Source of the DNA: JBFLXN01 sp040755715 [NCBI: Candidatus Edwardsbacteria bacterium]
GTDB lineage: Bacteria > Edwardsbacteria > AC1 > JBFLXN01
Length of the DNA stretch: 14,847 bases
Direction of reading: 5' to 3'
Assembly (NCBI GenBank): GCA_040755715.1
Contig: JBFLXN010000014.1
Location: 12,447 to 27,293 of the forward strand
A program made the position numbers and the translations under genes. Below are positions 1-13,163 of this stretch, one piece after another. The notes under the pieces are model-generated. The model searched no databases, was not told the origin of the DNA, and saw nothing but the letters and a program-made list of their open reading frames with translations. How positions within the stretch are numbered: position 1 is the stretch's first letter; each line of letters begins with the position of its first letter.

Positions 1-802
1 ATGGAGGTACAGGTCCAACGTATTTGAACTTTATCCTTCCATCATAAATTGTGCTTAGTCTATCTACTAATCTATCAAATTCTTCCACCCGGGGCTTTTC
101 TACCAAGAAAGCTAAGTTTGTTATCATATTATCGCCAAATATTTTATTGCTGCGCATATCAACATAAGCTTCTTTTAAGACATCCAGAATGTCCTTCTGT
201 TCTTTGGCTTTTTTTCGCTCCAGGGCATCTTTGACCTTCTCGCCTAATGTTATCCTATCTCCATATGTTTGAAGGGAACTTTTTGATGCTATTCTTTCTT
301 TCAAAATCTTGATATCTTTATTCTCTTCAATAATCTCCCCAAAGATTACTTTCATATTGCTCCAAAGGGCCTTAAGTCCTAATTCTATCTTATTATCCAT
401 TTTGATTAAAAGCTCTTTCAGTTCTTCATACCTGGCTTTAAGTACTTCCTTCCTTATCCTTTCTTCAGCACAAACTCCATCTTTACCACTGGCAACAGTG
501 CCAAACTTTACGGGTAAGATGGTAAGATCATCCATTATCAGTTCTTCCAAAACCTTCTGGTGAGCTATGGTATTTTCTCTTGAAATAGAATATTTCATAA
601 TTGGTGAAGGGCTGATTACCGCTGCGATATCTTGATAAGAGATGCTATAAACTGTATCAGCTCGTGCTCCGATTGCCGGGGAAGTAAATTTCCTCTCTTG
701 ATTCGTTCCAATTATACCGTAGATATACCTTCCCTCTACTACATTTAAATCGCTGTTATCTTGTATCTTTGTCTTATTGCCAACCTCTTGTCCTGAACTC
801 AT
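1..802 (-). CDS. gvpF: GvpF/GvpL family gas vesicle protein, third paralog (3' end outside window)
   Basis: GvpF/GvpL proteins are minor gas vesicle proteins needed for assembly; family members bind GvpA and act early in nucleation. I translated 267 residues before the window ends. The family hallmarks are visible: an N-terminal EGRYIYGII strand (residues 23-31), a central charged helical part, and the start of the C-terminal signature KYVGPVPP (260-267), which is close to the end in this family, so only about 20 residues should be missing. The ATG at 802 overlaps the stop of the preceding paralog in an ATGA, with AGGAAG upstream, pointing to translational coupling. It has about 22 extra N-terminal residues compared with its two neighbours. 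It is colinear with both paralogs in this window. Whether to call it gvpF or gvpL cannot be settled from the sequence alone. Confidence 0.88.
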   Translation of the reverse strand, partial: MSSGQEVGNKTKIQDNSDLNVVEGRYIYGIIGTNQERKFTSPAIGARADTVYSISYQDIAAVISPSPIMKYSISRENTIAHQKVLEELIMDDLTILPVKFGTVASGKDGVCAEERIRKEVLKARYEELKELLIKMDNKIELGLKALWSNMKVIFGEIIEENKDIKILKERIASKSSLQTYGDRITLGEKVKDALERKKAKEQKDILDVLKEAYVDMRSNKIFGDNMITNLAFLVEKPRVEEFDRLVDRLSTIYDGRIKFKYVGPVPP

Positions 803-1566
803 TGGCTTTCTTCCTGTCCCCATTTTATAACCAATTCCGCAAAATTAAATGGGGCTACCGGCCCTATATATTTAAACTTCAATCTATCCTTATATCTTTG
901 ACTCAGGTCCTCTATGTAGTCGTCAAATTCTCTTTCATGGGCTTTATCTACCAAGAAGGCGCAATTTAATATCATATTATCGCCTGCTATCTTATTTTTG
1001 CGGAGGTCAACGCATTTAGGCCTTAATACATCTAAAATATCCTCGCTTTGGGCTTCTCTTTTTTCTCCCAGGGCTTCTTTAACTTTTTTGCCCACCTCCA
1101 CCTTTTCATCTAAGGATAGTGCAGTAGATTCTCCGGTTAACCTCTCCTTCAAACTCTTTATTTCCTTATGACTCTCTCTGATTTCCTTAAAAATATTTTC
1201 CATATCCTGCCAGAAAACCTTTAAGCCCAACTCTATCTTATTATCCATACTTCTTAATAGATTCTTAAGTTCTTGATACTTCTTCATTAAAAGATGCCTG
1301 ACCTCTTCGGCGCTGGTGGCGATAGTGCAGAATCTAACAGGGAGCACAGTATAATCCTTCATTACCTCCTCTATTACCTTTTCATGGGCAATAAGGTTTT
1401 CCCGGCTAATCACATATTTAGTCATTGGAGTGGAACTAATAACACAGGCTAAATCACGAAAACATAAAGTGTGGACCTCGTCTCCTCTGCCTCCAATCCC
1501 TATAGGTCCAAAATTTCTCTCACCAGATTCATTAATTACACAATATAGATATTTTCCCTCATCCAT
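799..1566 (-). CDS. gvpF: GvpF/GvpL family gas vesicle protein, second paralog
   Basis: A complete 255-residue GvpF/L protein of about the usual family length. It opens with EGKYLYCVI (residues 3-11) and closes with KYIGPVAPFNF, the two conserved ends of the family, with a charged helical middle. The family is an assembly factor for gas vesicles and contacts GvpA; this is family knowledge, not seen here. An AAGGAG lies about 11 bases before the ATG, and 15 bases separate it from the J-domain-bearing paralog upstream. Its TGA overlaps the next paralog's ATG. Three successive GvpF/L genes imply a mixed F/L complex or specialised subunits. There is no J domain on this copy. Confidence 0.92.
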   Translation of the reverse strand: MDEGKYLYCVINESGERNFGPIGIGGRGDEVHTLCFRDLACVISSTPMTKYVISRENLIAHEKVIEEVMKDYTVLPVRFCTIATSAEEVRHLLMKKYQELKNLLRSMDNKIELGLKVFWQDMENIFKEIRESHKEIKSLKERLTGESTALSLDEKVEVGKKVKEALGEKREAQSEDILDVLRPKCVDLRKNKIAGDNMILNCAFLVDKAHEREFDDYIEDLSQRYKDRLKFKYIGPVAPFNFAELVIKWGQEESQ

Positions 1567-1581
1567 TTGTCACTATGCTCC

Positions 1582-2622
1582 TTATGGTCTGATTATCTCA
1601 ACCATAATAAAATTTTTCTGCTTATTATCCTCAAAAGATATATCTTCTCCTTGATAACAACTGGTTAATAACTTATAAGCACAGGTTACTTTTTCAAACC
1701 TTTCTTTAAGCTGGCTATTTTCAGGGTGCTTATCAGGGTGATTTCTTTGAGCGAAGTTCCGATAGGACTCTTTTATCTCCTCCAAAGAAATCTTATCTTG
1801 CAAGTCTAGTAATCTCTTTGCCTCATCTATCTGGTCGAATCCAATCCTTTTTAACTGGCAAGTAGCAAAACTGTAAGGAGGTAGGGGACCTACGCATCTA
1901 AAATTCATCTTCTGTTTGTATTCTTTATCCAACTCCTTAAGTGCAGCGTCAAAATCTGTCTCTTTAACCTTTTCCAGTAAAAAGGCGCAGCTTAAAATCA
2001 TCTTATCATCCATCAATTGATGCTTTTGAAAATCGCATGTTATGCCTTTTAAGAAATCTATTATAGAGGTTTGCTCTTTTTCTCTTCTCTTATCCAGGGC
2101 ATCTTTAATCATCATTCCTATCTTTATTCTATCCTGGAAAGTTTGGCTGGAAGGTTTTTTAGCAATTTCCGCCTTAAATTCTCTTATTTGACTATCTTCC
2201 TCTCCGATCTCCTTTATAATGCTATTTAAATCATTATAGGTAGCTGCCACATCAAGCTCTATCTTGCCATCCATATTGATAAGCAGTTCTTTAAATTGAG
2301 GATACCCTCTTTTTAGAACCTCTATAACCTCATCATCGTTAAAAACAAATGTCCCAAACTTCATAGGTATAATAGTATGGTCCTTCATAATTTTCTCGAT
2401 TATTGTCTGATGTTTCACCAAAAAACGGCCTAACGATTCTTTAAGCATAGATGAATAATCTTGAACAGGCGAATTACTAATTACGCAAGCAATATCTTGG
2501 TGAGCTACTGTGTAAACCTCTTCACCATCATTAATTCCACAGAGGCCGAAAGACTTTCTCTCTTTCTCCTTTATTAAACCATAAAGATATCTTCCCTCTT
2601 CCATAATGCTTGAGCCTCTCAT
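1582..2622 (-). CDS. gvpF: GvpF/GvpL family protein with a C-terminal DnaJ (J) domain
   Basis: The first two thirds (residues 7-257) are a GvpF/L protein: EGRYLYGLI near the N-terminus and CVGPLPPYSF at 243-252. The last part (about 266-324) is a J domain, with ISLEEIKESYRNFA as helix II, the diagnostic HPD at 295-297 followed by KHPE, and helix III ending in AYKLL. J domains stimulate the ATPase of Hsp70/DnaK, so this protein may bring DnaK to GvpA or to the nucleation site; that is inference. The two paralogs downstream lack this domain. At 346 residues it is about 90 longer than the family norm. Start choice: the ATG at 2622 has AAGGAA eight bases upstream, but the ATG at 2604 matches where the second paralog begins, so either may be used. 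It follows the Cdc48-type gene after 67 bases. Confidence 0.9.
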   Translation of the reverse strand: MRGSSIMEEGRYLYGLIKEKERKSFGLCGINDGEEVYTVAHQDIACVISNSPVQDYSSMLKESLGRFLVKHQTIIEKIMKDHTIIPMKFGTFVFNDDEVIEVLKRGYPQFKELLINMDGKIELDVAATYNDLNSIIKEIGEEDSQIREFKAEIAKKPSSQTFQDRIKIGMMIKDALDKRREKEQTSIIDFLKGITCDFQKHQLMDDKMILSCAFLLEKVKETDFDAALKELDKEYKQKMNFRCVGPLPPYSFATCQLKRIGFDQIDEAKRLLDLQDKISLEEIKESYRNFAQRNHPDKHPENSQLKERFEKVTCAYKLLTSCYQGEDISFEDNKQKNFIMVEIIRP

Positions 2623-2689: not shown

Positions 2690-4834
2690 TCATTGTTCTT
2701 TTATCAATTTCAGAGCCTCATCAAAATGTTTCCTCTTGATACCAAATTCTTCAATTGCCTTTTCATCAGGCTTACCTTTTACCTTTTGCAGAAACTCCCT
2801 TATCGCAAGCATAGAGGCCTGCCGACAGATTGCTTCTATATCTGCACCTGTAAGTTTATCGGTTTTGTTCACCAATTCTTTAAGGTCGACATCTTTATCC
2901 AACGGCTTACCTTTAGTATGTATCTTGAAAATTTCGAGTCGCGTCGCTTCATCAGGAATGGGAAATTCTAAAAGCAAATCAAATCTACCCGGGCGCAGCA
3001 CTGCAGGATCAAGCATATCAAATCTATTAGTTGCGCCTAAAACAACCACCCCTTTTAGCTCCTCTATTCCATCCATCTCTGTAAGAAACTGACTGATTAC
3101 CCGTTCTGTGGTGCGCGTAGAATCTCCTCCCCCTGCACCTCGAATGGGAACTACCGCATCTATTTCATCAAATAACACAATCGTCGGCGAGGCTTGTTTT
3201 GCCTTTTTAAAAACCTGGCGAATTCCTTTTTCTGACTCCCCCAAGTACTTAGACATTAATTGTGGACCTTTAACCGAAATAAAATTGACCCCACTTTCAT
3301 TAGCCACTGCCTTGGCCACTAAGGTCTTGCCTGTGCCTGGTGGTCCGTGAAGCAATATCCCTTTTGGGGGTCTGGTCTTGGCTTTGGTAAAAAGTTCAGG
3401 GTACTTTAAAGGCCACTCAATTGCCTCAATAAGTTGCTTCTTTATATCTTCTAATCCGCCCACATCGCTCCATTTTACATCCGGTATCTCAATAAATACT
3501 TCACGGATAGCCGAGGGTTCTATTTCTTTCAAGGCCTCCATAAAATTATCCATAGTAACTTCTAATTCCAAAAGGGTCTCATAAGGTATCTCTGCTAACT
3601 CGAAGTCTACCTTGGGTAATATCTTTCTCAAACAAACCATGGCTGCCTCTCTTGCCAGAGCTTCTAAATCTGCCCCAACAAATCCATGGGTGATTTCTGC
3701 CAGTTTCTCTAAGCTTACATCCTCAGATAGAGGCATACCTCTTGTATGGATCTGCAGTATCTCTAAGCGAGCATTCTTATCGGGAATAGGAATCTCAAGT
3801 TCCCGGTCAAATCGACCTGGCCGCCTTAAAGCTGGATCCAGTACATCAGGAATATTTGTTGCCCCGATACAAATTACTCTCCCTCTTGATTCTAATCCGT
3901 CTAACAATGCTAAGAGTTGCGCTACAACTCTCTTCTCAACCTGTTTTTCTCCTCCCATCTCCTCCCGTTTAGGGGCAATGGCATCCAACTCGTCGATAAA
4001 AACTATAGCTGGGGCGTTGGCTTGGGCATCTTCAAAGATAGACCGCAGCCGCGCTTCTGACTCGCCATACCACTTCGCCATAACTTCGGGCCCCGAAATA
4101 CTGGTAAAATACGCGTCGGTTTCATTGGCAACTGCCCGCGCAATTAATGTTTTTCCACAACCCGGGGGCCCGTGGAGTAAAATTCCTTGCGGGGCTTCAA
4201 TACCGAGCCTTTCAAATACCTCTGGATATTTAAGAGGCAATTCTATCATCTCCCTGATCCTCTGTATCTGTTTATCCAAGCCGCCTATATCTTCATAAGA
4301 TACCTTCAGCCCCCGTCTTTCTACTTCTTCCTTTACTTCCATTCTGATAGTCGTAGGAGGCTGAATTAAAACCACTTCATTCTTGGGAACTGTATCCAAT
4401 ACTTTAAAATCACAAGATCTAGCGCCAAATAAAGTGGCTCTGACTCTATCTCCAGCCACTAAAGGGAGGCCTTCTAAAAGGCGACCAATATATTGAGTAT
4501 CTTTTTCGCCTCGCAGTCCTCCAATAGTAATAGGGGATAAGGTAATTCTTTCGGCTGACTTATAAGATACCTTTTCAACAGTAGCCTTCTCATCCAGGCC
4601 AATTTGAGCATTCTCTCTGATAATTCCGTCTATTTGAACAATCCCTTTGCCTCTATCCTCTATATATGCAGGCATTACCTTACAAGCTGTTTTGCGTTTG
4701 CCCTCAATCTGAACAACATCTCCGACCTCACAGCCAAAAATCTTGAGGTCCTTAGGGTCCATTCTGGCTATACCCCTTCCCACATCGCGGGGTCTTGCTT
4801 CTGCTACTTTTAAGGTTAATTTTTTATTGGCCAT
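2690..4834 (-). CDS. Cdc48/VCP/VAT-type double AAA+ ATPase
   Basis: A 714-residue homolog of Cdc48/p97/archaeal VAT, a hexameric unfoldase that threads proteins through its pore using ATP. Order of domains: an N-terminal substrate/adaptor-binding region (about 1-170, [20 protein letters not shown]); D1 ATPase with Walker A GPPGCGKT (222-229), pore loop KWYGES (254-259), Walker B IVFIDE (277-282) and RRPGRFD; D2 with Walker A GPPGTGKT (497-504), KYLGES (529-534), Walker B IVLFDE (552-557) and LRPGRFD. Both ATP sites look intact and length is typical. The start fits the family N-terminus although the ribosome binding site is poor (GGAG only one base from ATG). It lies between hsp20 and gvpF/L genes, on the same strand, so it probably serves gas vesicle assembly, disassembly or quality control; that role is inferred. 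Cdc48-type proteins are much commoner in archaea than bacteria. Confidence 0.95.
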
Positions 4835-4848
4835 GCTCCAGCTCTAAT

Positions 4849-4917
4849 AAAAAAGGGAAGCCAGGGAAGAATAAGAAGTAAATCCATATTTTTTAGCTTA
4901 CCTTCCCTTTACTTCCC
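4849..4917 (-). terminator. Possible intrinsic terminator/attenuator between hsp20 and the Cdc48-type gene
   Basis: On the minus strand two GGGAAG blocks, one of them just before and one just after the hsp20 stop codon (4912-4917, 4902-4907), pair with two CTTCCC blocks (4864-4869, 4855-4860), and the second is followed directly by six T (4854-4849). A loop of about 32 bases separates the arms. An AAGTAAA/TTTACTT pairing offers an alternative fold. The layout suits partial termination lowering expression of the Cdc48-type and gvpF/L genes; it is not proof of a terminator because the loop is long. Confidence 0.4.
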
Positions 4918-5448
4918 AAGTTTGGTGAGTTTTATCTCTAAAATCCCGTTTTTATATGTAGAAGAAATGGGCTCCACCTCAACTTTGGAAGGAAGGAGAA
5001 CTTCCTTTTTATACTTCCTCTCACCTTTTTCAGCTGATATATTGAGGATATCGTCTTTTATTTCTGTCTTAATATCTGCCTCCTCAATGCCAGGAAGCTC
5101 TGCTACTACCAGAATATGGTCTTTCTCATCAAAGACATCGACTATGGGTTCTCTGACCTCTTCTACAACTGGACCCTTTGGAGTCTCTCTAATATTTCCG
5201 AATGGCACAACCTCTGCTCTCTCTCCTGCTAAGGTCCTTACTGTGAAACCAAAGATACCCTTTGCTCCCTTTGGCAAACCTTTAATCTCTCCTACCTTTT
5301 TAATCTCTCCTATCTCTTTGCCCAATTCAGCAGCCATCTCGATCAAATTACCGATTCCTTTAAAAAGTCCTCCAAAAGAAAGCTTGCCTATCCCAAAATC
5401 AATCTCAAACCCTTTCTCCTCTTCTTTTTTCTTCTTTTCTTCAGCCAT
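4909..5448 (-). CDS. Hsp20-family small heat shock protein, GvpH-like
   Basis: A 179-residue small heat shock protein. The alpha-crystallin domain occupies about residues 100-179: REPIVDVFDEKDHILVVAELPGI, then LNISAE, and the C-terminal NGILEIKL strand. The N-terminal part is glycine-rich and amphipathic (FGIGKLSFGGLFKGIGNLI), preceded by a lysine/glutamate tract KKKKEEEK. Hsp20 proteins hold unfolded or aggregation-prone proteins without ATP; gas vesicle clusters in several groups carry one, called GvpH in haloarchaea, which interacts with other Gvp proteins there. By context it should protect GvpA or minor Gvp proteins. GGGGGTG precedes the ATG. It follows the winged-helix array after 56 bases and precedes the Cdc48-type ATPase, so holdase and unfoldase genes are adjacent. 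Assignment to Hsp20 is firm; the GvpH label rests on context. Confidence 0.9.
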   Translation of the reverse strand: MAEEKKKKEEEKGFEIDFGIGKLSFGGLFKGIGNLIEMAAELGKEIGEIKKVGEIKGLPKGAKGIFGFTVRTLAGERAEVVPFGNIRETPKGPVVEEVREPIVDVFDEKDHILVVAELPGIEEADIKTEIKDDILNISAEKGERKYKKEVLLPSKVEVEPISSTYKNGILEIKLTKLGK

Positions 5449-5504: not shown

Positions 5505-5768
5505 CTATTTCTTCTTGCCTTTTTTTGGGGCTTTCTTTGCTTCAGGTGCTTCTGGAGGACCCTCCAATACACTTCTTCCTGCATAGGTCAGTTTATAGGT
5601 AACCCTACCAGCCTTAGTTATAAAACCAGATTTTGCTAAGGACCTCAGAAGCATATCTACATAATCCGGATAAAACCTAAGTCTTCTTGCTATCGTTAGG
5701 GCACAGCCCTTACTCTTTAGCTCACCAACCATCTTTAAGACCTTTAGTTCACTTTCAACTACTGCCAT
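5505..5768 (-). CDS. Small winged-helix protein 4 of the tandem family, lysine-rich tail
   Basis: An 87-residue protein whose first 70 residues match the pattern of its three upstream neighbours: an opening ESELKVLKMV helix, an ALTIARRL helix, then YVDMLLRSLAKSGFI as recognition-like helix and YKLTYAGRSVL as wing and final helix. This is a winged helix-turn-helix layout, read by eye. The tail EAPEAKKAPKKGKKK is strongly basic, which could bind nucleic acid or an acidic partner. A clear AAGGAGG precedes the ATG. It is the last of four tandem members and sits just before hsp20. No specific function can be given; DNA-binding regulator or protein adaptor are both possible. Confidence 0.75.
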   Translation of the reverse strand: MAVVESELKVLKMVGELKSKGCALTIARRLRFYPDYVDMLLRSLAKSGFITKAGRVTYKLTYAGRSVLEGPPEAPEAKKAPKKGKKK

Positions 5769-5789
5769 TTTTGACCTCCTTTTTTTATT

Positions 5790-6002
5790 CTATTTTACCA
5801 ATGCCTCTCTTCCCTTTGCTGTGATCCGACACATCCCATTTGCCAATAGGTCGATATAATCAGCTCTTGCCAAAGAGGTATAAAGTAGTCTGGCATAGTT
5901 TGTATCTATCCTCATTTTCCTGCCAACTAAGTGAATGGAAACTTCACCTCCCTCTTCATCGATTATCTTTAATGCCTCCAATTCACTACCACTTACTCCC
6001 AT
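5790..6002 (-). CDS. Small winged-helix protein 3 of the tandem family
   Basis: A 70-residue protein that is almost only a winged-helix domain: SELEALKIIDEEGG, VSIHLVGRKMRI, NYARLLYTSLARADYIDL and CRITAKGREAL. It shares the order and spacing of the other members, in particular the tyrosine in the third helix followed by L..SLA and a hydrophobic end, and the K/T-x-x-G turn before the last helix. Its ribosome binding site AAGGAGG lies inside the last codons of the preceding member, with only five bases between the two genes, so translation is probably coupled. Function unknown; being a single compact domain, it could dimerise and bind DNA, or act as an adaptor. Confidence 0.75.
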   Translation of the reverse strand: MGVSGSELEALKIIDEEGGEVSIHLVGRKMRIDTNYARLLYTSLARADYIDLLANGMCRITAKGREALVK

Positions 6003-6007
6003 TTCTC

Positions 6008-6253
6008 CTAAAGACCTCCTTTTAAGATACCAATCGGTCCCTTTGCCTTAACCGGACTAATCACCTTTTGGCCTTGGGGTGTAACTCTATATCTCCCATT
6101 GGCCCTTTCCACCAGATACCCATCTTTGACTAGACCATGACAAATTTCAGCTACATACTCCGATGAGACCCCCATCTTGCGAGCTATGGATTCTTTATCT
6201 GACTCCTCTGCCTCTCTAATTATCTTTAAAACCTGCGATTCACTTCCGGTCAT
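6008..6253 (-). CDS. Small winged-helix protein 2 of the tandem family
   Basis: An 81-residue protein with the same plan as its neighbours: GSESQVLKIIREAEESDKE, SIARKMGVSSEYVAEICHGLVKDGYLVE and YRVTPQGQKVI. The middle segment is the clearest helix-turn-helix of the set, with GVSSEYV as turn and recognition helix. A short tail VKAKGPIGILKGGL follows. GAGGG lies upstream of the ATG and the 16-base gap to the previous member suggests co-transcription. It resembles transcription-factor winged helices of the MarR/PadR general type only in fold; I do not recognise a named family. Confidence 0.78.
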   Translation of the reverse strand: MTGSESQVLKIIREAEESDKESIARKMGVSSEYVAEICHGLVKDGYLVERANGRYRVTPQGQKVISPVKAKGPIGILKGGL

Positions 6254-6269
6254 ATTTCTTTCCCTCGAT

Positions 6270-6614
6270 CTAAATAGGTCGAGCAGCTAATAGTTGCTCC
6301 TTACGCAAAGTAAGCCTTTTTATCTCCTTTCTCAACCTCCCTGCCTCAAGGGGGAGCCTGGAGATATCTGATCTTATCCTACTTTCCAAATGGTATAGTT
6401 GACTGAGGAGGGCATCAGCACCTTTAGGTGAAAGACTATAAAATCCCCTCGTAGGTTGAGCTAAATAGCCATTCTTAGCCAAACATTCCATGAGATAGCT
6501 TGCATATTCGGTTGATATCCCCATAAGATGAGCCATCTTCCGACTACTTATTTTATCTCTACTTTTATCTCTACCTTCAACAATTTTCAATATCTTTATT
6601 TCGTTTGGAGACAT
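6270..6614 (-). CDS. Small winged-helix protein 1 of the tandem family, with C-terminal coiled coil
   Basis: A 114-residue protein. Residues 1-70 form the shared winged helix: NEIKILKIVEGRDKS, KMAHLMGISTEYASYLMECLAKNGYL and FYSLSPKGADALL. Residues 71-114 form a charged heptad-like helix (LESRIRSDI, AGRLRKEIKRLTLRKEQLL) that could mediate dimerisation or bind another Gvp protein; no other member has it. AAGGGAAG lies just before the ATG, and it starts 11 bases after the TPR gene. It is the first of the four-gene array and may be the best preserved in function. No specific role can be assigned. Confidence 0.77.
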   Translation of the reverse strand: MSPNEIKILKIVEGRDKSRDKISSRKMAHLMGISTEYASYLMECLAKNGYLAQPTRGFYSLSPKGADALLSQLYHLESRIRSDISRLPLEAGRLRKEIKRLTLRKEQLLAARPI

Positions 6615-7415: not shown

Positions 7416-8336
7416 TTAACAAATTTGTTTAATTAAATCTACCATCTTTCCTTTAATATCTATCTTTTCCCTATCTACAGAATCTATTTCCGAATCCAGG
7501 ATATCCAGACAGGTCTGCACAAAACCTTCATCAGAAGAGCTGGCATCGGAGCTAGACAACCTCATCACCCTGCCAATCATTATAGCAGCGCGTATAGTTG
7601 GAATAGCTCCATCTTTATCCTGGCCTCTCAGGGCTCTTACAATGTCTACTATCTTCTCGGCGTCTGAGCGAGATATGTCCGCCTTAGCAGTAGTGATAGC
7701 TACCTCGGTATCACGATCATAATGTTGCAGTTTTATGGTAATCATCCTATCCCGAAGCGCATCTTGAGCCCTATACACACCGGCGTACTCATGGGGGTTG
7801 CTGGTAAAGATGGCACGGAAGTTTGGATGAACTCTTAAGTATCCCTCTATCCCTCTGGCTGCTGGAAGGTCCAAAATTCTTTCCTCCAAGACAGATAAGA
7901 GGACATTATTTGCCTCTGCCTTGGATCTTGTGAACTCATCATAAACAAGGGTAAATCCATGTTTACAGGCTACGGTCAATCGATTATCTACCCATCTTCC
8001 TACTACATCCTCTTCAGCCTTGAGAACTGAATGGATGAAATTATCTACTAGTTTCTTCTTACGGTATCCAAATTCTGAGCCTACTAAATCAGAGGTGCCA
8101 AATTCGTCATCTCCGTGAATTAAAATAGTTGGCTGTCCTAACTGAGCCGCTAAATACATAGCCAGAGAAGTCTTACCTGTCCCTGCCGGGCCTGAAAAGT
8201 GAATTGGAAAGCCAGCCTGAATATACAAAAGTGCCCGCCTTATTATATCCTTTACATAGGGCGTCTGGACAAAAGTGGGTTGCTCCTTAGCCAACATTAT
8301 TGGCTGAACTTCGGCAATCGTATCAATCTCATTCAT
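7416..8336 (-). CDS. gvpN: GvpN, AAA+ ATPase, second copy
   Basis: GvpN is a MoxR-like AAA+ ATPase required for full growth of gas vesicles. From the chosen start it has 306 residues, with Walker A GPAGTGKT (49-56), Walker B TLVYDE (129-134), sensor FTSNPHEYAG and an arginine-finger-like LRDRM. The ATG at 8336 is preferred over one 19 codons earlier because GGAGGG lies seven bases upstream and because the protein then matches the first GvpN in length (305). It overlaps the end of the GvpO-like gene by eight bases in an ATGAATGA. The whole protein aligns to the first copy without large gaps, including the unusual RWVDNRLTVACK block. Two GvpNs could form a mixed hexamer or act at different stages. 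Catalytic residues look intact in both. Confidence 0.95.
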   Translation of the reverse strand: MNEIDTIAEVQPIMLAKEQPTFVQTPYVKDIIRRALLYIQAGFPIHFSGPAGTGKTSLAMYLAAQLGQPTILIHGDDEFGTSDLVGSEFGYRKKKLVDNFIHSVLKAEEDVVGRWVDNRLTVACKHGFTLVYDEFTRSKAEANNVLLSVLEERILDLPAARGIEGYLRVHPNFRAIFTSNPHEYAGVYRAQDALRDRMITIKLQHYDRDTEVAITTAKADISRSDAEKIVDIVRALRGQDKDGAIPTIRAAIMIGRVMRLSSSDASSSDEGFVQTCLDILDSEIDSVDREKIDIKGKMVDLIKQIC

Positions 8337-9486
8337 CTTCTTTCCCTCCTCCCTTTTCTTGGTTAACGATATCTGCTTCCTCTTCTGGGACAAATTCTAA
8401 TTTCCCATCCTTCCAACCAATCTCTATCTCCTCGGTTACTATGGGAGGTTTGCCTTTTCTTTTCACATTGCGCAGCCTCATCTCCTCCCAAGGTTCGATG
8501 GTGGCAAGCCATCCGTCTGCCGTGCGTTCTAAGCTAATAAGACGGCCTATTTCTGAAAACTTATCTTCCAGAAGCTGCCTGGCTTCGTCTTCATTATCTA
8601 TATTAAAAGATATCCCCCTCAGCGACTCTCTGAGAGGCTTGGTCAGAAGTTCTTCTCTCAGACTCTCTATTACTTCTTCATCTTCTACTTCCTCAAAGGA
8701 GGATATCTGGAAGTTCTCATCAATCTCCACTCTATATATAATAGGTATATCAAACCCCGAAATCCTGCGACACTTCTTCTCTTCCCAGGGTTCTATCCAT
8801 ATCAAACATCTGTTTTCTTGCCATTCGATATCAAAGACCTCGCCAGCGTTCTCTGATACTTCTTCTAAAAGACCAGATGCCATCTTAGGATCTGCAGCAT
8901 CCTTCTGATCCTTTAGCCTTTCACCAAACTCTATCAGGGCTTCGTTTAAGACCTCTTTATGCTTCTCAATTCTCATCCTTATCTCTTCTTTTTTTCTCTT
9001 TTCTTCTTCTTTTCTCTGCTTCCAAACAACTGCTTCTCGTTCTAAATCATGCAATCTGGTATCTTGGGTTCTCTTCCCTAATGCCCTGGCCCATTCTGCG
9101 GCTATTAACTTCTTCCTGAGCGCTACAATAGTAGCCATATTCAAAGGTATTTGTTTCTTCTTTCCATCCTCTTCTTTTTGCCAGGGTTTATATTGAACCC
9201 ATGCTATTTCATCCCTTGACTCCGCTCGGGATAGGTCAAACAATCTTTGCTTATCATAATCCACTACCTTTTTAACGATGGTCTCTCGAAAGGAAAGCCC
9301 TAAAGATTCCTCCTTTTTTAACATTTCTTTTTGTTTAAGTCTTGCTTCCATCTCCTTCTTTTCTTTCCATGCTAAAGCTGCCTTCTCTAAAAGAGATGGA
9401 GATTCAATTTTTCTTCTAAATATCCGGTCCTTTTCTTTGGATATTTCCTTTATAGCTTTTGCTTTTACACTGATTCCTTTTTCCAT
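8329..9486 (-). CDS. Coiled-coil protein with two C-terminal GvpO-like domains
   Basis: A 385-residue protein. Residues 1-195 are very rich in lysine and glutamate and read as long helices (for example REAVVWKQRKEEEKRKKEE). The C-terminal half holds two similar units, about 201-268 and 298-368, each with A..LLE, a short segment, then an aromatic strand and IEPWEE (231-236 and 330-335), a basic stretch, and a Y/E-V-E-I strand followed by an acidic linker. This order (ER-x-DGW, hydrophobic strand with E-x-x-E-x-x-R, then YEVELDEDGEL-type strand) is what I know of GvpO, a small gas vesicle protein of about 140 residues or less in actinobacteria and haloarchaea. The assignment is by eye and moderate. 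The ATG overlaps the previous stop in a TAATG, so translation is coupled. A fused, duplicated GvpO would be unusual. Confidence 0.6.
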   Translation of the reverse strand: MEKGISVKAKAIKEISKEKDRIFRRKIESPSLLEKAALAWKEKKEMEARLKQKEMLKKEESLGLSFRETIVKKVVDYDKQRLFDLSRAESRDEIAWVQYKPWQKEEDGKKKQIPLNMATIVALRKKLIAAEWARALGKRTQDTRLHDLEREAVVWKQRKEEEKRKKEEIRMRIEKHKEVLNEALIEFGERLKDQKDAADPKMASGLLEEVSENAGEVFDIEWQENRCLIWIEPWEEKKCRRISGFDIPIIYRVEIDENFQISSFEEVEDEEVIESLREELLTKPLRESLRGISFNIDNEDEARQLLEDKFSEIGRLISLERTADGWLATIEPWEEMRLRNVKRKGKPPIVTEEIEIGWKDGKLEFVPEEEADIVNQEKGGGKEDE

Positions 9487-10253
9487 TACTCTAATACCTT
9501 CTCTCCATTAGGGGTAAGGGTGTATAAGAGGCCGTGCCGTAGGAGAAGTCTTTTTTTGACTAAAGCGTCACAGAGTTGTTCTGCATAAGCGGATGAAACA
9601 GGTGGTGACATATTCCTGCCTACTGCAACCCTGTCAGCCTGGCCCAATTCTTTAACTACTTCCAGGGCCTCGCGCTCACTTCCTGCTACTGAACGAACCA
9701 GTTCTTCTTTTACCTTATCTTGAGACCTCTCTTCAGTGAAACTGCCGACCTCTTCTAATTCCTCTTCTTGTAGTTCCCAAGGTTGTTCCTCTTCTTCCTT
9801 TACAGTTACAACGCCTTTTCCTCGGCATTTTATGCAGACAAGTTTATTAGTGGGCTCCTTACCTGTGCCCCGACAATGAGGGCATATATCAACAGGCTCT
9901 TCTACATGAATGACTCCTTTACCTCTACAGGCAGTGCAGGTAACATTACTTCTGGGCTTCTCTTCTCCGCTGCCTTTACAATAAGCGCATCTTACGGTTG
10001 GCGGCTCAACGGAGACTGTACCCGCGCCTCTACAAACAGAACATTTTGAACCTCTGGGCTTCTCGCCTGCCCCATTGCAAAATCCACAAGGATATATCTC
10101 GTCTTCCAAAATCTCACCTACTTGATGGCTAGCGTATTGACCTGCTGGTCTTAATTTAACCGGTTGCCATATCCATTCATCCTTTAATTTTTTTATACCC
10201 GTCTTTCCGGTGCGTATCCTTTTATATGAGCTTGAATCCCATTCCCAATCCAT
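9486..10253 (-). CDS. DnaJ-type zinc-finger protein with six CxxCxGxG motifs and a C-terminal winged helix
   Basis: A 255-residue protein. Six CxxCxGxG motifs begin near residues 56 (CGFCNGAG), 71 (CSVCRGAG), 89 (CAYCKGSG), 106 (CTACRGKG), 124 (CPHCRGTG) and 140 (CIKCRGKG). In DnaJ four such motifs build two zinc sites that help substrate handling; six suggests three sites. There is no J domain. After an acidic linker (about 154-185), residues 190-255 form a winged helix like the small proteins at 5505-6614 (SEREALEVVKELG, AYAEQLCDALVKKRLL, YTLTPNGEKVL). The ATG at 10253 is preferred over one 11 codons earlier because AGGAGGTAAA lies directly before it and the earlier one would overlap the upstream gene. 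Likely role: chaperone-like binding of a Gvp protein, joined to the winged-helix family; inferred. Confidence 0.85.
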   Translation of the reverse strand: MDWEWDSSSYKRIRTGKTGIKKLKDEWIWQPVKLRPAGQYASHQVGEILEDEIYPCGFCNGAGEKPRGSKCSVCRGAGTVSVEPPTVRCAYCKGSGEEKPRSNVTCTACRGKGVIHVEEPVDICPHCRGTGKEPTNKLVCIKCRGKGVVTVKEEEEQPWELQEEELEEVGSFTEERSQDKVKEELVRSVAGSEREALEVVKELGQADRVAVGRNMSPPVSSAYAEQLCDALVKKRLLLRHGLLYTLTPNGEKVLE

Positions 10254-10961: not shown

Positions 10962-11037
10962 TGGTTAAGTGGTAATTGGTGATTGGTTAAATAATATTTC
11001 ATTTAACCTTTTAACCAGTTAACCAGTTACCAATTAA
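10962..11037 (-). repeat. AT-rich inverted repeats after gvpN copy 1
   Basis: The gap after the first gvpN contains a perfect GGTTAAAT/ATTTAACC stem (10985-10992 and 11001-11008) around eight bases, flanked by further GGTAATTGG and CCAGTTACC type arms, so a long hairpin is possible on either strand. The same eight-base arms follow the second gvpN (7382-7413). No clear T-run follows. Confidence 0.55.
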
Positions 11038-11951
11038 CAATACTGGTCAATCAATCCGTTTATAACTTCCCTTACCTTTGCCTGATGGGTCCTGGAGCCA
11101 ACTCTGCTTGTCTCTGAAGTCAATATCTCTAACGCTGTTTCCCTGAAGATGGGATTATCTTTAGAGACTACCCCCCTTCTTACCTTCAAGGTCTTACCAA
11201 TCATAATGGGACCGCGAATAGTGGGGGCGTACTCGCATTTCCCTGATTCCCTCAAGCCTTTCACAATATTGACTATTCTTTCTGAATCCTCCCGCGAAAG
11301 TCCTGTCTTGGCTTCGGTAATAGCTATCTCTGTCTCTTTATCAAAGTGGTCCAAATCGATAGTAATCATCCTATCCCGAAGGGCATCCTGGCTTCTATAA
11401 ACACCCGCATATTCCTCAGGATTGGAAGTAAAGATAGCTGTAAAGTTAGGGTCAACGCGAAGGTAACTTTCTCCACCTCCCCTTGCGGCAGGTAGATCAA
11501 GCATCTTTTCTTGAAGGACGGAAAGTAAGGTATTGTTGGCTTCAGGCCGGGAACGAGTAAATTCGTCGTAGATTAGGGTAAATCCATATTTGCAAGCAAC
11601 AGTTAAGCGGTTATCCACCCAGCGCCTCTGCATATCCTCTTCGGTCTTTAATACTGAGTGGATAAAATTATCTACTATCTTTCTTAGGCGGTAGCCATAT
11701 TCTCCTCCTACTAAATCTGACGAGGAGAATTCTTCATCTCCGTGGATCATTACTACTGGCCGGCCCATTTTAGAGGCTACATGCATAGCTAGAGTAGTCT
11801 TTCCCGTCCCAGATATTCCTCTAAAATGTATTGGGAATCCAGCAGAGATATAAGCTAAGGCCCTTTCAGTTATAGCTTTTACCTGGTCGGTCTCCACAAA
11901 ATTGGGCAAGGGCCGCGGCTCTAATACTGTGGTAAGTTCTTCAACTGGCAT
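11034..11951 (-). CDS. gvpN: GvpN, AAA+ ATPase, first copy
   Basis: A 305-residue GvpN, the MoxR-like AAA+ ATPase of gas vesicle clusters, needed for vesicles to widen and grow to full size. Walker A is GISGTGKT (45-52), followed by the family block HGDEEFSSSDLVGGEYGYR (70-88), RWVDNRLTVACKYG, Walker B TLIYDE (125-130), FTRSRPEANN, the sensor FTSNPEEYAG and LRDRM. All key residues look intact. The ATG has AAGGAGGTG five bases upstream, within an unusually structured 163-base leader, so its translation may be regulated. It is the more GvpN-typical copy by context, next to the GvpA and GvpC-like genes. A second copy lies at 7416-8336. Confidence 0.96.
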   Translation of the reverse strand: MPVEELTTVLEPRPLPNFVETDQVKAITERALAYISAGFPIHFRGISGTGKTTLAMHVASKMGRPVVMIHGDEEFSSSDLVGGEYGYRLRKIVDNFIHSVLKTEEDMQRRWVDNRLTVACKYGFTLIYDEFTRSRPEANNTLLSVLQEKMLDLPAARGGGESYLRVDPNFTAIFTSNPEEYAGVYRSQDALRDRMITIDLDHFDKETEIAITEAKTGLSREDSERIVNIVKGLRESGKCEYAPTIRGPIMIGKTLKVRRGVVSKDNPIFRETALEILTSETSRVGSRTHQAKVREVINGLIDQYC

Positions 11952-12114: not shown

Positions 12115-12438
12115 TTATACAACACCCTTGCCTCTACAAGTAAGACAAGGAAGACTAACTGGAGCCGATCCAGTGCCTTTGCATTCAGGACAGGTCTTTG
12201 CGCCTTTGGGCACAGTAACCATGCCTTTGCCTCCGCATACAGTACAGGTAAGTCTCGTATCAAAGTAAACACCTGTCCCCTTGCAGAAGGCGCATTTTGC
12301 GGTTGGTGGAGTAACTCTTACCTTACCTGTGCCTGAACACACCTGGCAGATAGACAAAGGAGAGAGAAGCCCGAAGGGGTCTTTGCCTAGTCCCTTGCAG
12401 AAGGCACATTTTATTTCGGCACCTTTTACTTCAGCCAT
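12115..12438 (-). CDS. Small DnaJ-type zinc-finger protein with six CxxCxGxG motifs
   Basis: A 107-residue protein consisting of six CxxCxGxG-type motifs at residues 11 (CAFCKGLG), 31 (CQVCSGTG), 49 (CAFCKGTG), 65 (CTVCGGKG), 83 (CPECKGTG) and 98 (CLTCRGKG). It is the DnaJ central zinc region without J domain or C-terminal substrate domains, and with six rather than four motifs. Such modules bind zinc and have thiol and holdase activity in DnaJ. It resembles the zinc part of the protein at 9486-10253, so the two are probably paralogs. It follows the GvpC-like gene after 53 bases and precedes the gvpN leader. A role in holding GvpA or GvpC is inferred. Confidence 0.87.
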   Translation of the reverse strand: MAEVKGAEIKCAFCKGLGKDPFGLLSPLSICQVCSGTGKVRVTPPTAKCAFCKGTGVYFDTRLTCTVCGGKGMVTVPKGAKTCPECKGTGSAPVSLPCLTCRGKGVV

Positions 12439-12491: not shown

Positions 12492-13163
12492 TTAGCTTCT
12501 TCTCTTTATTCTTTTTTTACCTTTTCTTTTAGCCGGCACCTTCACTTCAGCCTCAACCACCGCTTTCTCTTCTGCCAGTGCTATAGGGGATGGCTTTTCT
12601 TTTCTGGTAGTTGCCATTGTAGACAACAAATCCTTCCACGCTCCAGCAACCGCTTCTCTTTCTTTCTTATAATCTGCCAGAAGGTCAGCAACAGCAGCGG
12701 CTCTTTCTTTATCCTCTGCTTTAAAACCCTGAACAAGCTTAGAAACCTCATTAGCTCTATCTTTACTTTCTGCTGTAAACTGCTTAATGAGCTTTTGAGT
12801 ATCAGCGGCTCTGGCTTTGTCTTCTTCTTTGCATTCACCTAAGAATTTAGCTGTCTCAGCGGCTCTGGCTTTGTCTTCTTCTTTGCATTCACCTAAGAAT
12901 TTAGCTGTCTCAGCGGCTCTGGCTTTGTCTTCTTCTTTGCATTCACCTAAGAATTTAGCTGTCTCAGCGGCTCTGGCTTTGTCTTCTTTGTTAGCTTCCT
13001 TTATAAGCCTGTGGGCTTCATCCTTTATGGCTACATTCTCATCGTGAAGAGTTTTTATTATCTGCTTCGTCTCCCTTTTAATATCTTTGATACGCCCAAC
13101 CCTGTCCTTATAAGCATTAGCCATATCTTCAGCCAGGGATTTGAAATCATCTGCCACTGCCAT
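12492..13163 (-). CDS. GvpC-like coiled-coil protein with 18-residue repeats
   Basis: A 223-residue helical protein. Residues 59-166 are six units of 18 residues (59-76, 77-94, 95-112, 113-130, 131-148, 149-166); the first three share EDKARAAETAKFLGEC and the last three have diverged (for example AEDKERAAAVADLLADYK). Eighteen residues is exactly five helical turns, so equivalent side chains fall on one face, as expected for a helix lying along a surface. GvpC, the outer shell-strengthening protein, is also a repeat helix, though its classic repeat is 33 residues. The N-terminal cap (Y18, V22, R30, E31, H40) and the C-terminal W176 region match the protein at 13609-14247. The tail is basic (KRKGKKRIKRRS). 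It directly follows gvpA copy 1. GvpC function is inferred from position and architecture. Confidence 0.8.
   Translation of the reverse strand: MAVADDFKSLAEDMANAYKDRVGRIKDIKRETKQIIKTLHDENVAIKDEAHRLIKEANKEDKARAAETAKFLGECKEEDKARAAETAKFLGECKEEDKARAAETAKFLGECKEEDKARAADTQKLIKQFTAESKDRANEVSKLVQGFKAEDKERAAAVADLLADYKKEREAVAGAWKDLLSTMATTRKEKPSPIALAEEKAVVEAEVKVPAKRKGKKRIKRRS
12803..12988 (-). repeat. Perfect 54-bp tandem repeats inside the GvpC-like gene
   Basis: Three identical 54-base units (12803-12856, 12857-12910, 12911-12964) are followed by a 24-base partial copy (12965-12988). Each encodes one 18-residue protein repeat, so changes in copy number keep the reading frame. Perfect identity at the DNA level indicates a recent expansion. 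Confidence 0.97.

What the first reader, a model, noticed from the sequence alone, without database searches (positions are those of the whole stretch)
1582..2622. A J domain fused to GvpF/L, with DnaJ-type zinc modules on separate proteins: a split DnaJ for gas vesicles
Seen: the GvpF/L protein at 1582-2622 ends in a J domain with intact HPD (residues 295-297). Two other genes in the cluster (12115-12438 and 9486-10253) carry six CxxCxGxG motifs each but no J domain. Known: DnaJ joins a J domain, four CxxCxGxG motifs and substrate domains in one chain. Inference: the cluster spreads DnaJ functions over GvpF/L and zinc proteins, so DnaK would be recruited by GvpF/L while zinc proteins hold GvpA or GvpC.
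Basis: partly seen in the sequence, partly recalled or inferred. Interest (0 to 1): 0.78.

Follow-up and report, generated by a model that had tools for sequence, protein, structure and literature searches.

The report
Gas-vesicle chaperone carrying a J domain
A helper protein for building bacterial gas bubbles (GvpF/L) carries a built-in "J domain" that in other proteins switches on the Hsp70 chaperone, and this fusion is kept across many bacterial groups, which suggests that these bacteria use Hsp70 to handle the very water-repelling bubble protein.

Summary
The gene at 2622-1582 (minus strand) encodes a GvpF/L domain followed by a J domain above Pfam's cut-off, with HPD at residues 295-297. 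AlphaFold2 (pLDDT 93) gives a GvpF fold plus J helices I-III. The fusion recurs in 75 of 79 related loci with labels of 22 phyla. HPD is intact in 106 of 106 fusions found (94 at 95% non-redundancy), and H, P and D are three of nine invariant residues in 49 aligned. The GvpF/L domain alone marks this paralog (101 of 103, against 1 of 361 others). Several J+ clusters also encode an Hsp70; 13 of 15 of these group apart from host DnaK. "The J domain recruits Hsp70 to GvpF/L" is thus well supported, though untested at the bench. The "split DnaJ" half is not: zinc proteins and fusion occur independently in 64 complete clusters (27 both, 30 J only, 3 zinc only, 4 neither; p=1), and the zinc proteins have six evenly spaced motifs, unlike DnaJ. 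My ten searches of an open-access library showed neither the fusion nor the linked Hsp70 in print.

The parts
1582..2622 (-). J-fused GvpF/L (346 aa), GvpF/L domain + J domain + C-terminal strand
   Evidence: AlphaFold2 pLDDT 93.4
1864..2595 (-). GvpF/L domain, residues 10-253
   Evidence: PF06386 207 bits; fold match to GvpF crystal structures 6l5d (Z 21.4, rmsd 2.3, 239 aligned) and 4qsg (Z 20.7, rmsd 3.8, 239 aligned)
1657..1836 (-). J domain, residues 263-322 (helices I-III; helix IV replaced by a tail)
   Evidence: PF00226 43.9 bits; predicted helices 262-271, 280-294, 303-322; J-domain structures in Foldseek and VIA-align
1732..1740 (-). HPD motif, residues 295-297
   Evidence: invariant in 49 of 49 aligned fusions and present in 106 of 106 found
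1591..1611 (-). C-terminal beta strand, residues 338-344, after the J domain
   Evidence: DSSP of the model; hydrophobic pattern kept in the alignment
799..1566 (-). GvpF/L paralog without J domain
   Evidence: PF06386 218 bits
2..823 (-). GvpF/L paralog without J domain in the part seen, cut by the window edge
   Evidence: PF06386 189 bits
2690..4834 (-). CDC48-family AAA ATPase, directly upstream of the J-fused gene (gap 67 bp)
   Evidence: TIGR01243 958 bits; gap
4909..5448 (-). Hsp20 small heat-shock protein (perhaps GvpH-like)
   Evidence: PF00011 34.3 bits, cut-off 20.8; PF05455 GvpH 19 bits, below its cut-off of 22
9486..10253 (-). Zinc protein with six CxxCxGxG motifs and a C-terminal part that looks winged-helix-like
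   Evidence: the winged-helix label is by eye, from resemblance to the small genes 5505-6614
12115..12438 (-). Zinc protein with six CxxCxGxG motifs (probably three two-motif modules)
   Evidence: AlphaFold2 pLDDT 85
7416..8393 (-). GvpN (second copy)
   Evidence: TIGR02640 355 bits
11034..11951 (-). GvpN (first copy)
   Evidence: TIGR02640 332 bits
13298..13504 (-). GvpA shell protein, likely client
   Evidence: PF00741 60.5 bits; NF006874 127 bits
14378..14584 (-). GvpA shell protein, second copy, one residue different
   Evidence: translation; not scanned on its own

Best explanation
The gene encodes a client-dedicated J-domain protein (class C type: a J domain on a client-specific partner, without DnaJ's G/F, zinc or C-terminal domains). 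Its GvpF/L domain binds newly made GvpA or a GvpA-like minor shell protein, as GvpF does elsewhere. Its C-terminal J domain presents HPD to an Hsp70, triggers ATP hydrolysis and hands over the hydrophobic client, keeping it soluble until it enters the growing vesicle. The Hsp70 is the host DnaK in lineages without a linked one. In others, including the two nearest relatives whose contigs reach that far, it is probably an Hsp70 encoded at the end of the gvp cluster. Shown here by computation: the fusion, the J fold, the conservation of HPD, that it is one paralog class, and the linked Hsp70s. Inferred: client binding (from GvpF in other organisms), Hsp70 stimulation, pairing with the linked Hsp70, and that the window's organism has such an Hsp70 beyond the window's left edge.
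For: J domain above curated cut-off with a confident fold. HPD intact in 106 of 106 fusions, 94 of 94 at 95% and 89 of 89 at 80% non-redundancy; invariant in 49 of 49, among nine invariant columns of the whole protein. Fusion in 75 of 79 related loci, one per locus. GvpF/L domain alone, cross-validated: 101 of 103 J-fused rows typed as this paralog, 1 of 361 others; the tail of that one looks like a broken J. In trees the J rows group together (22 of 23 in one fork, SH-aLRT 94; 24 rows on one side of a branch, support only 67). Octadecabacter arcticus GvpF/L WP_015497776.1, named only 'GvpL/GvpF family' in its record, falls in that group and has PF00226 at 28.0 bits (cut-off 27.8) with HPD. 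An Hsp70 lies within 2.3 kb of a GvpF/L gene on the gvp contig of G001 (L001, 79% identical fusion), G002 (L005), G007, G008, G637, G666 and G820 (places; distances worked out by hand). 13 of 15 gvp-linked Hsp70s form one side of a branch (100/98) apart from host DnaK. A strong Hsp70 match (E<1e-100) in 78 of 80 genomes: 29 of 30 and 49 of 50, counted by hand. Literature: GvpF is GvpA's only partner in a haloarchaeal screen (PMC7688916, abstract and passages) and its proposed chaperone (PMC11445434, passages; PMC10903477, passage).
Against: No biochemical test. GvpF-GvpA binding was shown for GvpF of other organisms; in this cluster the J-less paralogs could bind GvpA instead, and the J-fused one could serve another client. 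In PMC11445434 GvpF-GvpA2 binding appeared only when other Gvp proteins were removed, and GvpG supersedes it. Helix IV of the J domain is missing. No linked Hsp70 on the gvp contig of many J+ genomes (by hand: G003, G005, G006, G128, G236, G280, G300, G327, G335, G338, G346, G453, G762; the list is capped, weak matches only), and 0 of 4 J- clusters with long flanks (G558, G618, G761, G769) is too few to show an association. Two of 15 linked Hsp70s fall outside the clade. One J+ genome, G845, shows no strong Hsp70 (it may be incomplete). J- gvp clusters exist, so the J domain is not needed everywhere. The one J-type domain without HPD (L195) is outside the 106 because the J model did not find it.
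Confidence: 0.74

Rival explanations
1. Split DnaJ: the J-fused GvpF/L and the six-motif zinc proteins together make up one DnaJ-like machine, with the zinc proteins holding GvpA or GvpC.
For: Both kinds of gene sit in one co-directional cluster in the window and in 27 of 64 non-redundant complete clusters; the zinc proteins match the DnaJ central-domain profile and all 12 cysteines are invariant in 40 of 40 aligned.
Against: No association: J only 30, zinc only 3, neither 4 (p=1). In the family-search set the trend is opposite (2 both, 20 J only, 3 zinc only, 3 neither, p=0.05; without the CDC48 rule 2, 20, 5, 3, p=0.007); in the similarity-picked set 26, 14, 0, 1 (p=0.37). Genome-wide: short zinc protein in 7 of 23 J+ and 4 of 7 J- genomes. 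Even spacing unlike DnaJ, strand order that suggests adjacent pairing; the cleanest local structural match is to anti-TRAP, none is significant (Foldseek best E 0.032, BSD2). The Octadecabacter cluster has the fusion and no protein with two or more CxxCxGxG in the 20.7 kb scanned.
Confidence: 0.1
2. The J domain is a scaffold or oligomerisation module that no longer acts on Hsp70.
For: Helix IV is replaced by a tail and a strand; J domains with structural roles are known (recalled; chains of a radial spoke and of a respiratory complex appear among the matches).
Against: HPD, which is needed for Hsp70 and not for the fold (recalled), is invariant in 49 of 49 while most other J positions vary; only 1 J-type GvpF/L of those classified lacks an intact J.
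Confidence: 0.12
3. The J-fused GvpF/L serves disassembly or quality control: it brings Hsp70, together with CDC48 and Hsp20 of the cluster, to misassembled or collapsed vesicles rather than to nascent GvpA.
For: CDC48 and Hsp20 are neighbours in the window and in many of the regions scanned; CDC48 is an unfoldase (recalled).
Against: CDC48 and Hsp20 are also present in J- clusters (L232, L234, L239, L246, L250), so they do not mark a J-specific pathway; GvpF in other organisms is thought to act on new GvpA.
Confidence: 0.15

Closest known systems
GvpF/GvpL gas-vesicle assembly proteins (PF06386; structures 4qsg, 6l5d)
   Same: Full GvpF fold over residues 8-256, Z 21.4 (rmsd 2.3, 239 aligned) and 20.7 (rmsd 3.8, 239 aligned); gene neighbourhood with gvpA, gvpN and hsp20.
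   Different: Adds a C-terminal J domain of about 60 residues and a closing strand; the two solved GvpF chains are 250 and 253 residues long and match only residues 6-254.
Class C J-domain proteins (a J domain on a client-specific partner; class recalled)
   Same: J domain with HPD on a protein whose other domain is specific for one client or place; no G/F, zinc or C-terminal DnaJ domain listed for it.
   Different: I know of no class C protein with a GvpF/L domain (recall); helix IV is missing.
DnaJ (class A)
   Same: J domain; CxxCxGxG motifs occur in the same cluster.
   Different: Motifs are on separate proteins, six rather than four, evenly spaced, and not inherited together with the J domain.
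Anti-TRAP / BSD2 / DUF5351 zinc proteins
   Same: CxxCxGxG pairs without a J domain; 28-column match to anti-TRAP at 0.7-1.0 A, not significant by E-value; PF15777 and PF17302 matches.
   Different: Six motifs in one chain, inside a gvp cluster; whole-chain matches are weak (best Z 4.3).

Membership tests
GvpF/L (PF06386) | Match above the curated cut-off over the whole profile | tested here: met
   207 bits, cut-off 23.6, profile 1-244 of 245
GvpF/L (PF06386) | GvpF fold and location in a gvp cluster | tested here: met
   GvpA and GvpN
GvpF/L (PF06386) | Binds GvpA | not testable with these tools
   Reported for other GvpF proteins only
J-domain proteins (PF00226) | J-domain profile match above cut-off | tested here: met
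   43.9 bits, cut-off 27.8
J-domain proteins (PF00226) | HPD between helices II and III | tested here: met
J-domain proteins (PF00226) | Helix IV (present in full-length J domains; recalled as dispensable for Hsp70 contact, so not counted as defining) | tested here: not met
   Model shows three helices, then a loop and a strand
J-domain proteins (PF00226) | Stimulates Hsp70 ATPase | not testable with these tools
   needs purified proteins
DnaJ (class A), as one machine split over proteins | G/F region and C-terminal substrate domains present on some cluster protein | tested here: inconclusive
   No such Pfam match listed for the 19 of 20 window genes scanned, but a low-complexity G/F region is poorly detected
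DnaJ (class A), as one machine split over proteins | J part and zinc part inherited together | tested here: not met
   27/30/3/4 table, p=1
DnaJ zinc domain (PF00684) | Profile match above cut-off | tested here: met
   42.0 and 49.6 bits, cut-off 32.7
DnaJ zinc domain (PF00684) | Four motifs with DnaJ spacing | tested here: not met
   Six motifs, spacing 15-20 throughout in the two window proteins
Hsp70 (PF00012), the gvp-linked gene in a relative | Full-length Hsp70 match | tested here: met
   L260 588 aa, 715 bits, profile 1-594 of 599; outside the window

The most novel reading that the evidence does not exclude
Gas-vesicle clusters of many phyla encode a dedicated Hsp40/Hsp70 system: a J-fused GvpF/L that delivers GvpA, and in several lineages a cluster-borne Hsp70 clade that evolved with it, so that vesicle assembly in these bacteria is an Hsp70-driven process with CDC48 and Hsp20 as helpers.
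Probability: 0.5. Interest if true: 0.75.

Novelty: new variant of a known kind. Interest (0 to 1): 0.62.

Why it matters
How cells keep the very hydrophobic GvpA soluble until it joins the shell is named as an open question in a 2024 review (PMC10903477, passage). A J domain fixed to GvpA's presumed chaperone points to Hsp70 as a missing partner and makes this testable by one point change (HPD). It could also matter for moving gas vesicles into new hosts as ultrasound reporters, since an Hsp70 partner might be limiting there (inference). For annotation, such genes can pass as plain GvpL/GvpF family members, as the Octadecabacter one does.

Tried and rejected
Split DnaJ: tested by co-occurrence in loci and genome-wide, by motif spacing and by fold; not supported. 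J+ clusters always having a linked Hsp70: rejected by reading the Hsp70 places. A viral origin: the one scan of viral contigs found no relative. Own genome of the window: none held. In the Foldseek and VIA lists of the zinc model no row is significant; families that are not listed are not excluded.

Weak points of the counts. The first set of loci was picked by similarity to P0001 and its paralogs, with the best 80 of 179 kept, so its J share is biased; it holds near-copies (L043 and L044 are one contig in two assemblies). The second set (85 of 838 genomes with a match) is drawn from three phyla only (their names are my inference from the centre loci; the tool names none) and gave 90 regions. 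Of 170 sources (79 loci, 90 regions, window) 70 passed as complete clusters (GvpA, GvpN, CDC48, at least two GvpF/L) and 64 stayed after removal of those over 90% identical; the other 100 were dropped. A complete cluster whose contig is cut just beyond GvpN could still hide a zinc gene; one search checks this for 16 J+ genomes without one. The J-fused counts leave out domains of 200 residues or less (103 of 106 J-fused used). In the tree L060 is labelled as a J- cluster though it has a J fusion, L049 and L064 are cut contigs, and 3 of 130 rows were dropped as too short. One search included G250, a genome without a GvpF/L match, by a slip, so 79 of the 80 genomes are gvp genomes, and not all of these are J+. 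Most loci are metagenome bins, so single phylum labels may be wrong (e.g. L056, an archaeal label on a low-coverage contig).

Papers: ten searches in an open-access library; in the listings and passages seen, none describes a J domain on GvpF/L or an Hsp70 in a gvp cluster. Most listed papers were not opened; subscription papers and preprints were not searched. For PMC2963123, PMC10903477, PMC10470525, PMC7688916, PMC11445434, PMC3551663, PMC3646047, PMC2405808 and PMC6107691 I saw passages found by term (for PMC7688916 also the abstract and outline); for all others only the search listing.

Full report
What is in the window. The gvp genes lie on the minus strand with gaps of 163 bp or less, save one of 364 bp after the first gvpN. 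In transcription order: GvpA, a coiled-looking protein, GvpA, a second one, a six-motif zinc protein (12438-12115), GvpN, a 131-aa protein, a larger six-motif zinc protein (10253-9486), a 385-aa protein, a second GvpN, a TPR protein, four small genes that look winged-helix-like, Hsp20, a CDC48-family ATPase, the J-fused GvpF/L (2622-1582), and two further GvpF/L genes, the last cut by the window edge.

The J domain. Pfam gives PF00226 at 43.9 bits, cut-off 27.8; the PDB sequence search aligns residues 270-323 with a J domain at E 4.9e-7, and more below it. AlphaFold2 on 49 fusions (A3) gives mean pLDDT 93.4 and pTM 0.84: GvpF fold, then helices 262-271, 280-294 and 303-322, then a strand 338-344. 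VIA-align gives Z 21.4 to GvpF 6l5d (rmsd 2.3, 239 aligned). For J domains it gives Z 8.3 (2ctw, rmsd 4.3, 66 aligned) and 7.9 for the J domain bound to DnaK in 5nro (rmsd 2.7, 61 aligned), middling values tied with unrelated rows, so the J fold rests on sequence and Foldseek (probability 1.00, E 0.009) as well. Helix IV is missing. A strand before the J domain (254-260) and one after it (338-344) suggest that the domain is mounted on the GvpF/L body and not on a floppy linker; I had no coordinates, so this is inference.

Conservation. The search of genome contigs kept the best 80 of 179 relatives, 79 loci. In these and the window there are 76 J-fused GvpF/L genes, one each in 75 of 79 loci and the window, all with HPD. 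With the second set there are 106, all with HPD; 94 remain at 95% and 89 at 80% non-redundancy, again all with HPD. In A3 the invariant residues of the whole protein are G169, L191, P246, P248, Y250, F252 and H295, P296, D297. The 75 loci carry labels of 22 phyla; 10 have none.

One paralog class. A profile made from the GvpF/L domain alone, tested by two-fold cross-validation, types 101 of 103 J-fused domains as J-type and 1 of 361 others; the tail of that one, L195, looks like a broken J remnant without HPD. The tree of 127 GvpF/L domains puts 22 of 23 J rows in one fork (SH-aLRT 94) together with one row that I had taken for J-less, from the Octadecabacter arcticus plasmid pOA238_160. That protein (360 aa) proved to have a J domain with HPD (28.0 bits, cut-off 27.8). 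In a second tree of 79 rows the 24 J rows are on one side of a branch, with weak support, 67. One origin is likely but not proven.

An Hsp70 in the cluster. A search for PF00012 in 30 and 50 genomes showed a further Hsp70 on the gvp contig of several J+ genomes. In G001 (home of L001, the closest relative, 79% identical fusion) it lies some 65 bp after a GvpA-domain gene and 1.3 kb after a GvpF/L match, same strand; G002 (L005) has it 1.3 kb from a GvpF/L match too. L002-L004, closer to the window than L005, lie on contigs of 3.7 to 18.1 kb and do not settle the matter. Further cases are G007, G008, G637, G666, G820 and loci L017, L052, L055, L056. A tree of 32 Hsp70s puts 13 of 15 gvp-linked ones on one side of a branch (bootstrap 100, SH-aLRT 98), apart from the host DnaKs; the other two (G008, L056) are elsewhere, and four rows have long branches. 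For 10 of the 13 I saw a J fusion in the same genome or locus; the gvp contigs of G619, G767 and G778 are too fragmentary to tell. Many J+ clusters, among them most of the Bacteroidota-type ones examined, have no linked Hsp70. A strong Hsp70 (E<1e-100) was found in 78 of 80 genomes, not in G845 and G211, so a general partner is nearly always at hand. The window stops before the place where its own linked Hsp70 would be.

The zinc proteins. They are conserved: all 12 cysteines are invariant in 40 of 40 aligned. Their six motifs are evenly spaced, while the only true DnaJ in the first set of loci has four at 16, 26, 14. In the model, strand 7-10 (before motif 1) and strand 39-42 (after motif 2) flank a first module and strands 46-48 and 73-75 a second, which fits three modules 1+2, 3+4, 5+6; strand partners were not shown, so this is inference. 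Foldseek has no significant match; the cleanest local one is anti-TRAP, 28 columns at 0.7-1.0 A. Co-occurrence with the J fusion in 64 complete non-redundant clusters is 27 both, 30 J only, 3 zinc only, 4 neither (p=1). In the similarity-picked part it is 26, 14, 0, 1 (p=0.37); in the family-search part 2, 20, 3, 3 (p=0.05, opposite sense). With a looser rule (no CDC48 needed) it is 31, 31, 5, 4 of 71 (p=1), and 2, 20, 5, 3 (p=0.007, opposite sense) in the family-search part. Genome-wide, 7 of 23 J+ genomes and 4 of 7 J- genomes have a short zinc protein; the other genomes show DnaJ-length frames or nothing. So the two parts do not depend on each other.

Mechanism. GvpF was the only GvpA partner found in a haloarchaeal screen (PMC7688916, abstract), and it is the proposed primary chaperone of GvpA2 in another system, where its binding shows only when other Gvp proteins are absent and is superseded by GvpG (PMC11445434, passages). 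Adding a J domain to such a protein is the known logic of class C J proteins (recalled): bring Hsp70 to one client. I take this as the most likely working. Client and ATPase stimulation are untested.

Verdict. The J-fused GvpF/L is a new variant of a known kind (a client-specific J protein), and the linked Hsp70 makes a dedicated chaperone pair in some lineages plausible.

Noticed in passing
L260:3767-5530 (G001), outside the window: Hsp70 gene in the gvp cluster of the closest relative, grouping apart from host DnaK; followed by a 161-aa gene without a Pfam match at E<=0.001 and a 768-aa protein with two ArsA-type ATPase stretches.
   Followed up: partly
L260:5599-6693: A 365-aa protein joins a GvpA domain to a Vps36/GRAM/PH-like region.
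   Followed up: no
window 2690-4834: A CDC48-family ATPase with N domain (958 bits to TIGR01243) sits in the gvp cluster, and relatives do so in J+ and J- clusters. Two paper searches listed no account of it; of 8 papers one was opened.
   Followed up: partly
window 5505-6614 and 9486-9800: Four small genes in a row that look winged-helix-like (weak Pfam matches), resembling by eye the C-terminal part of the larger zinc protein.
   Followed up: no
window 12492-13163: Protein with three identical copies of an 18-residue repeat (by eye); possibly a GvpC-like shell protein.
   Followed up: no
window 7416-8393 and 11034-11951: Two GvpN genes in one cluster.
   Followed up: no
L195:12394-13293 (G312): The only J-type GvpF/L domain without an intact J domain; lone, with no other gvp gene scored in its 19.9 kb region.
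   Followed up: no
L231, L239, L246, L250 (family-search regions): A second cluster type with zinc proteins but no J domain; three of the four regions (not L231, where none was scored) also show CDC48 and Hsp20.
   Followed up: partly
PMC2405808, passage: Psychromonas ingrahamii has DnaK-like genes 1232-1233 not far from its gas-vesicle genes 1248-1262; whether they belong together was not checked.
   Followed up: no
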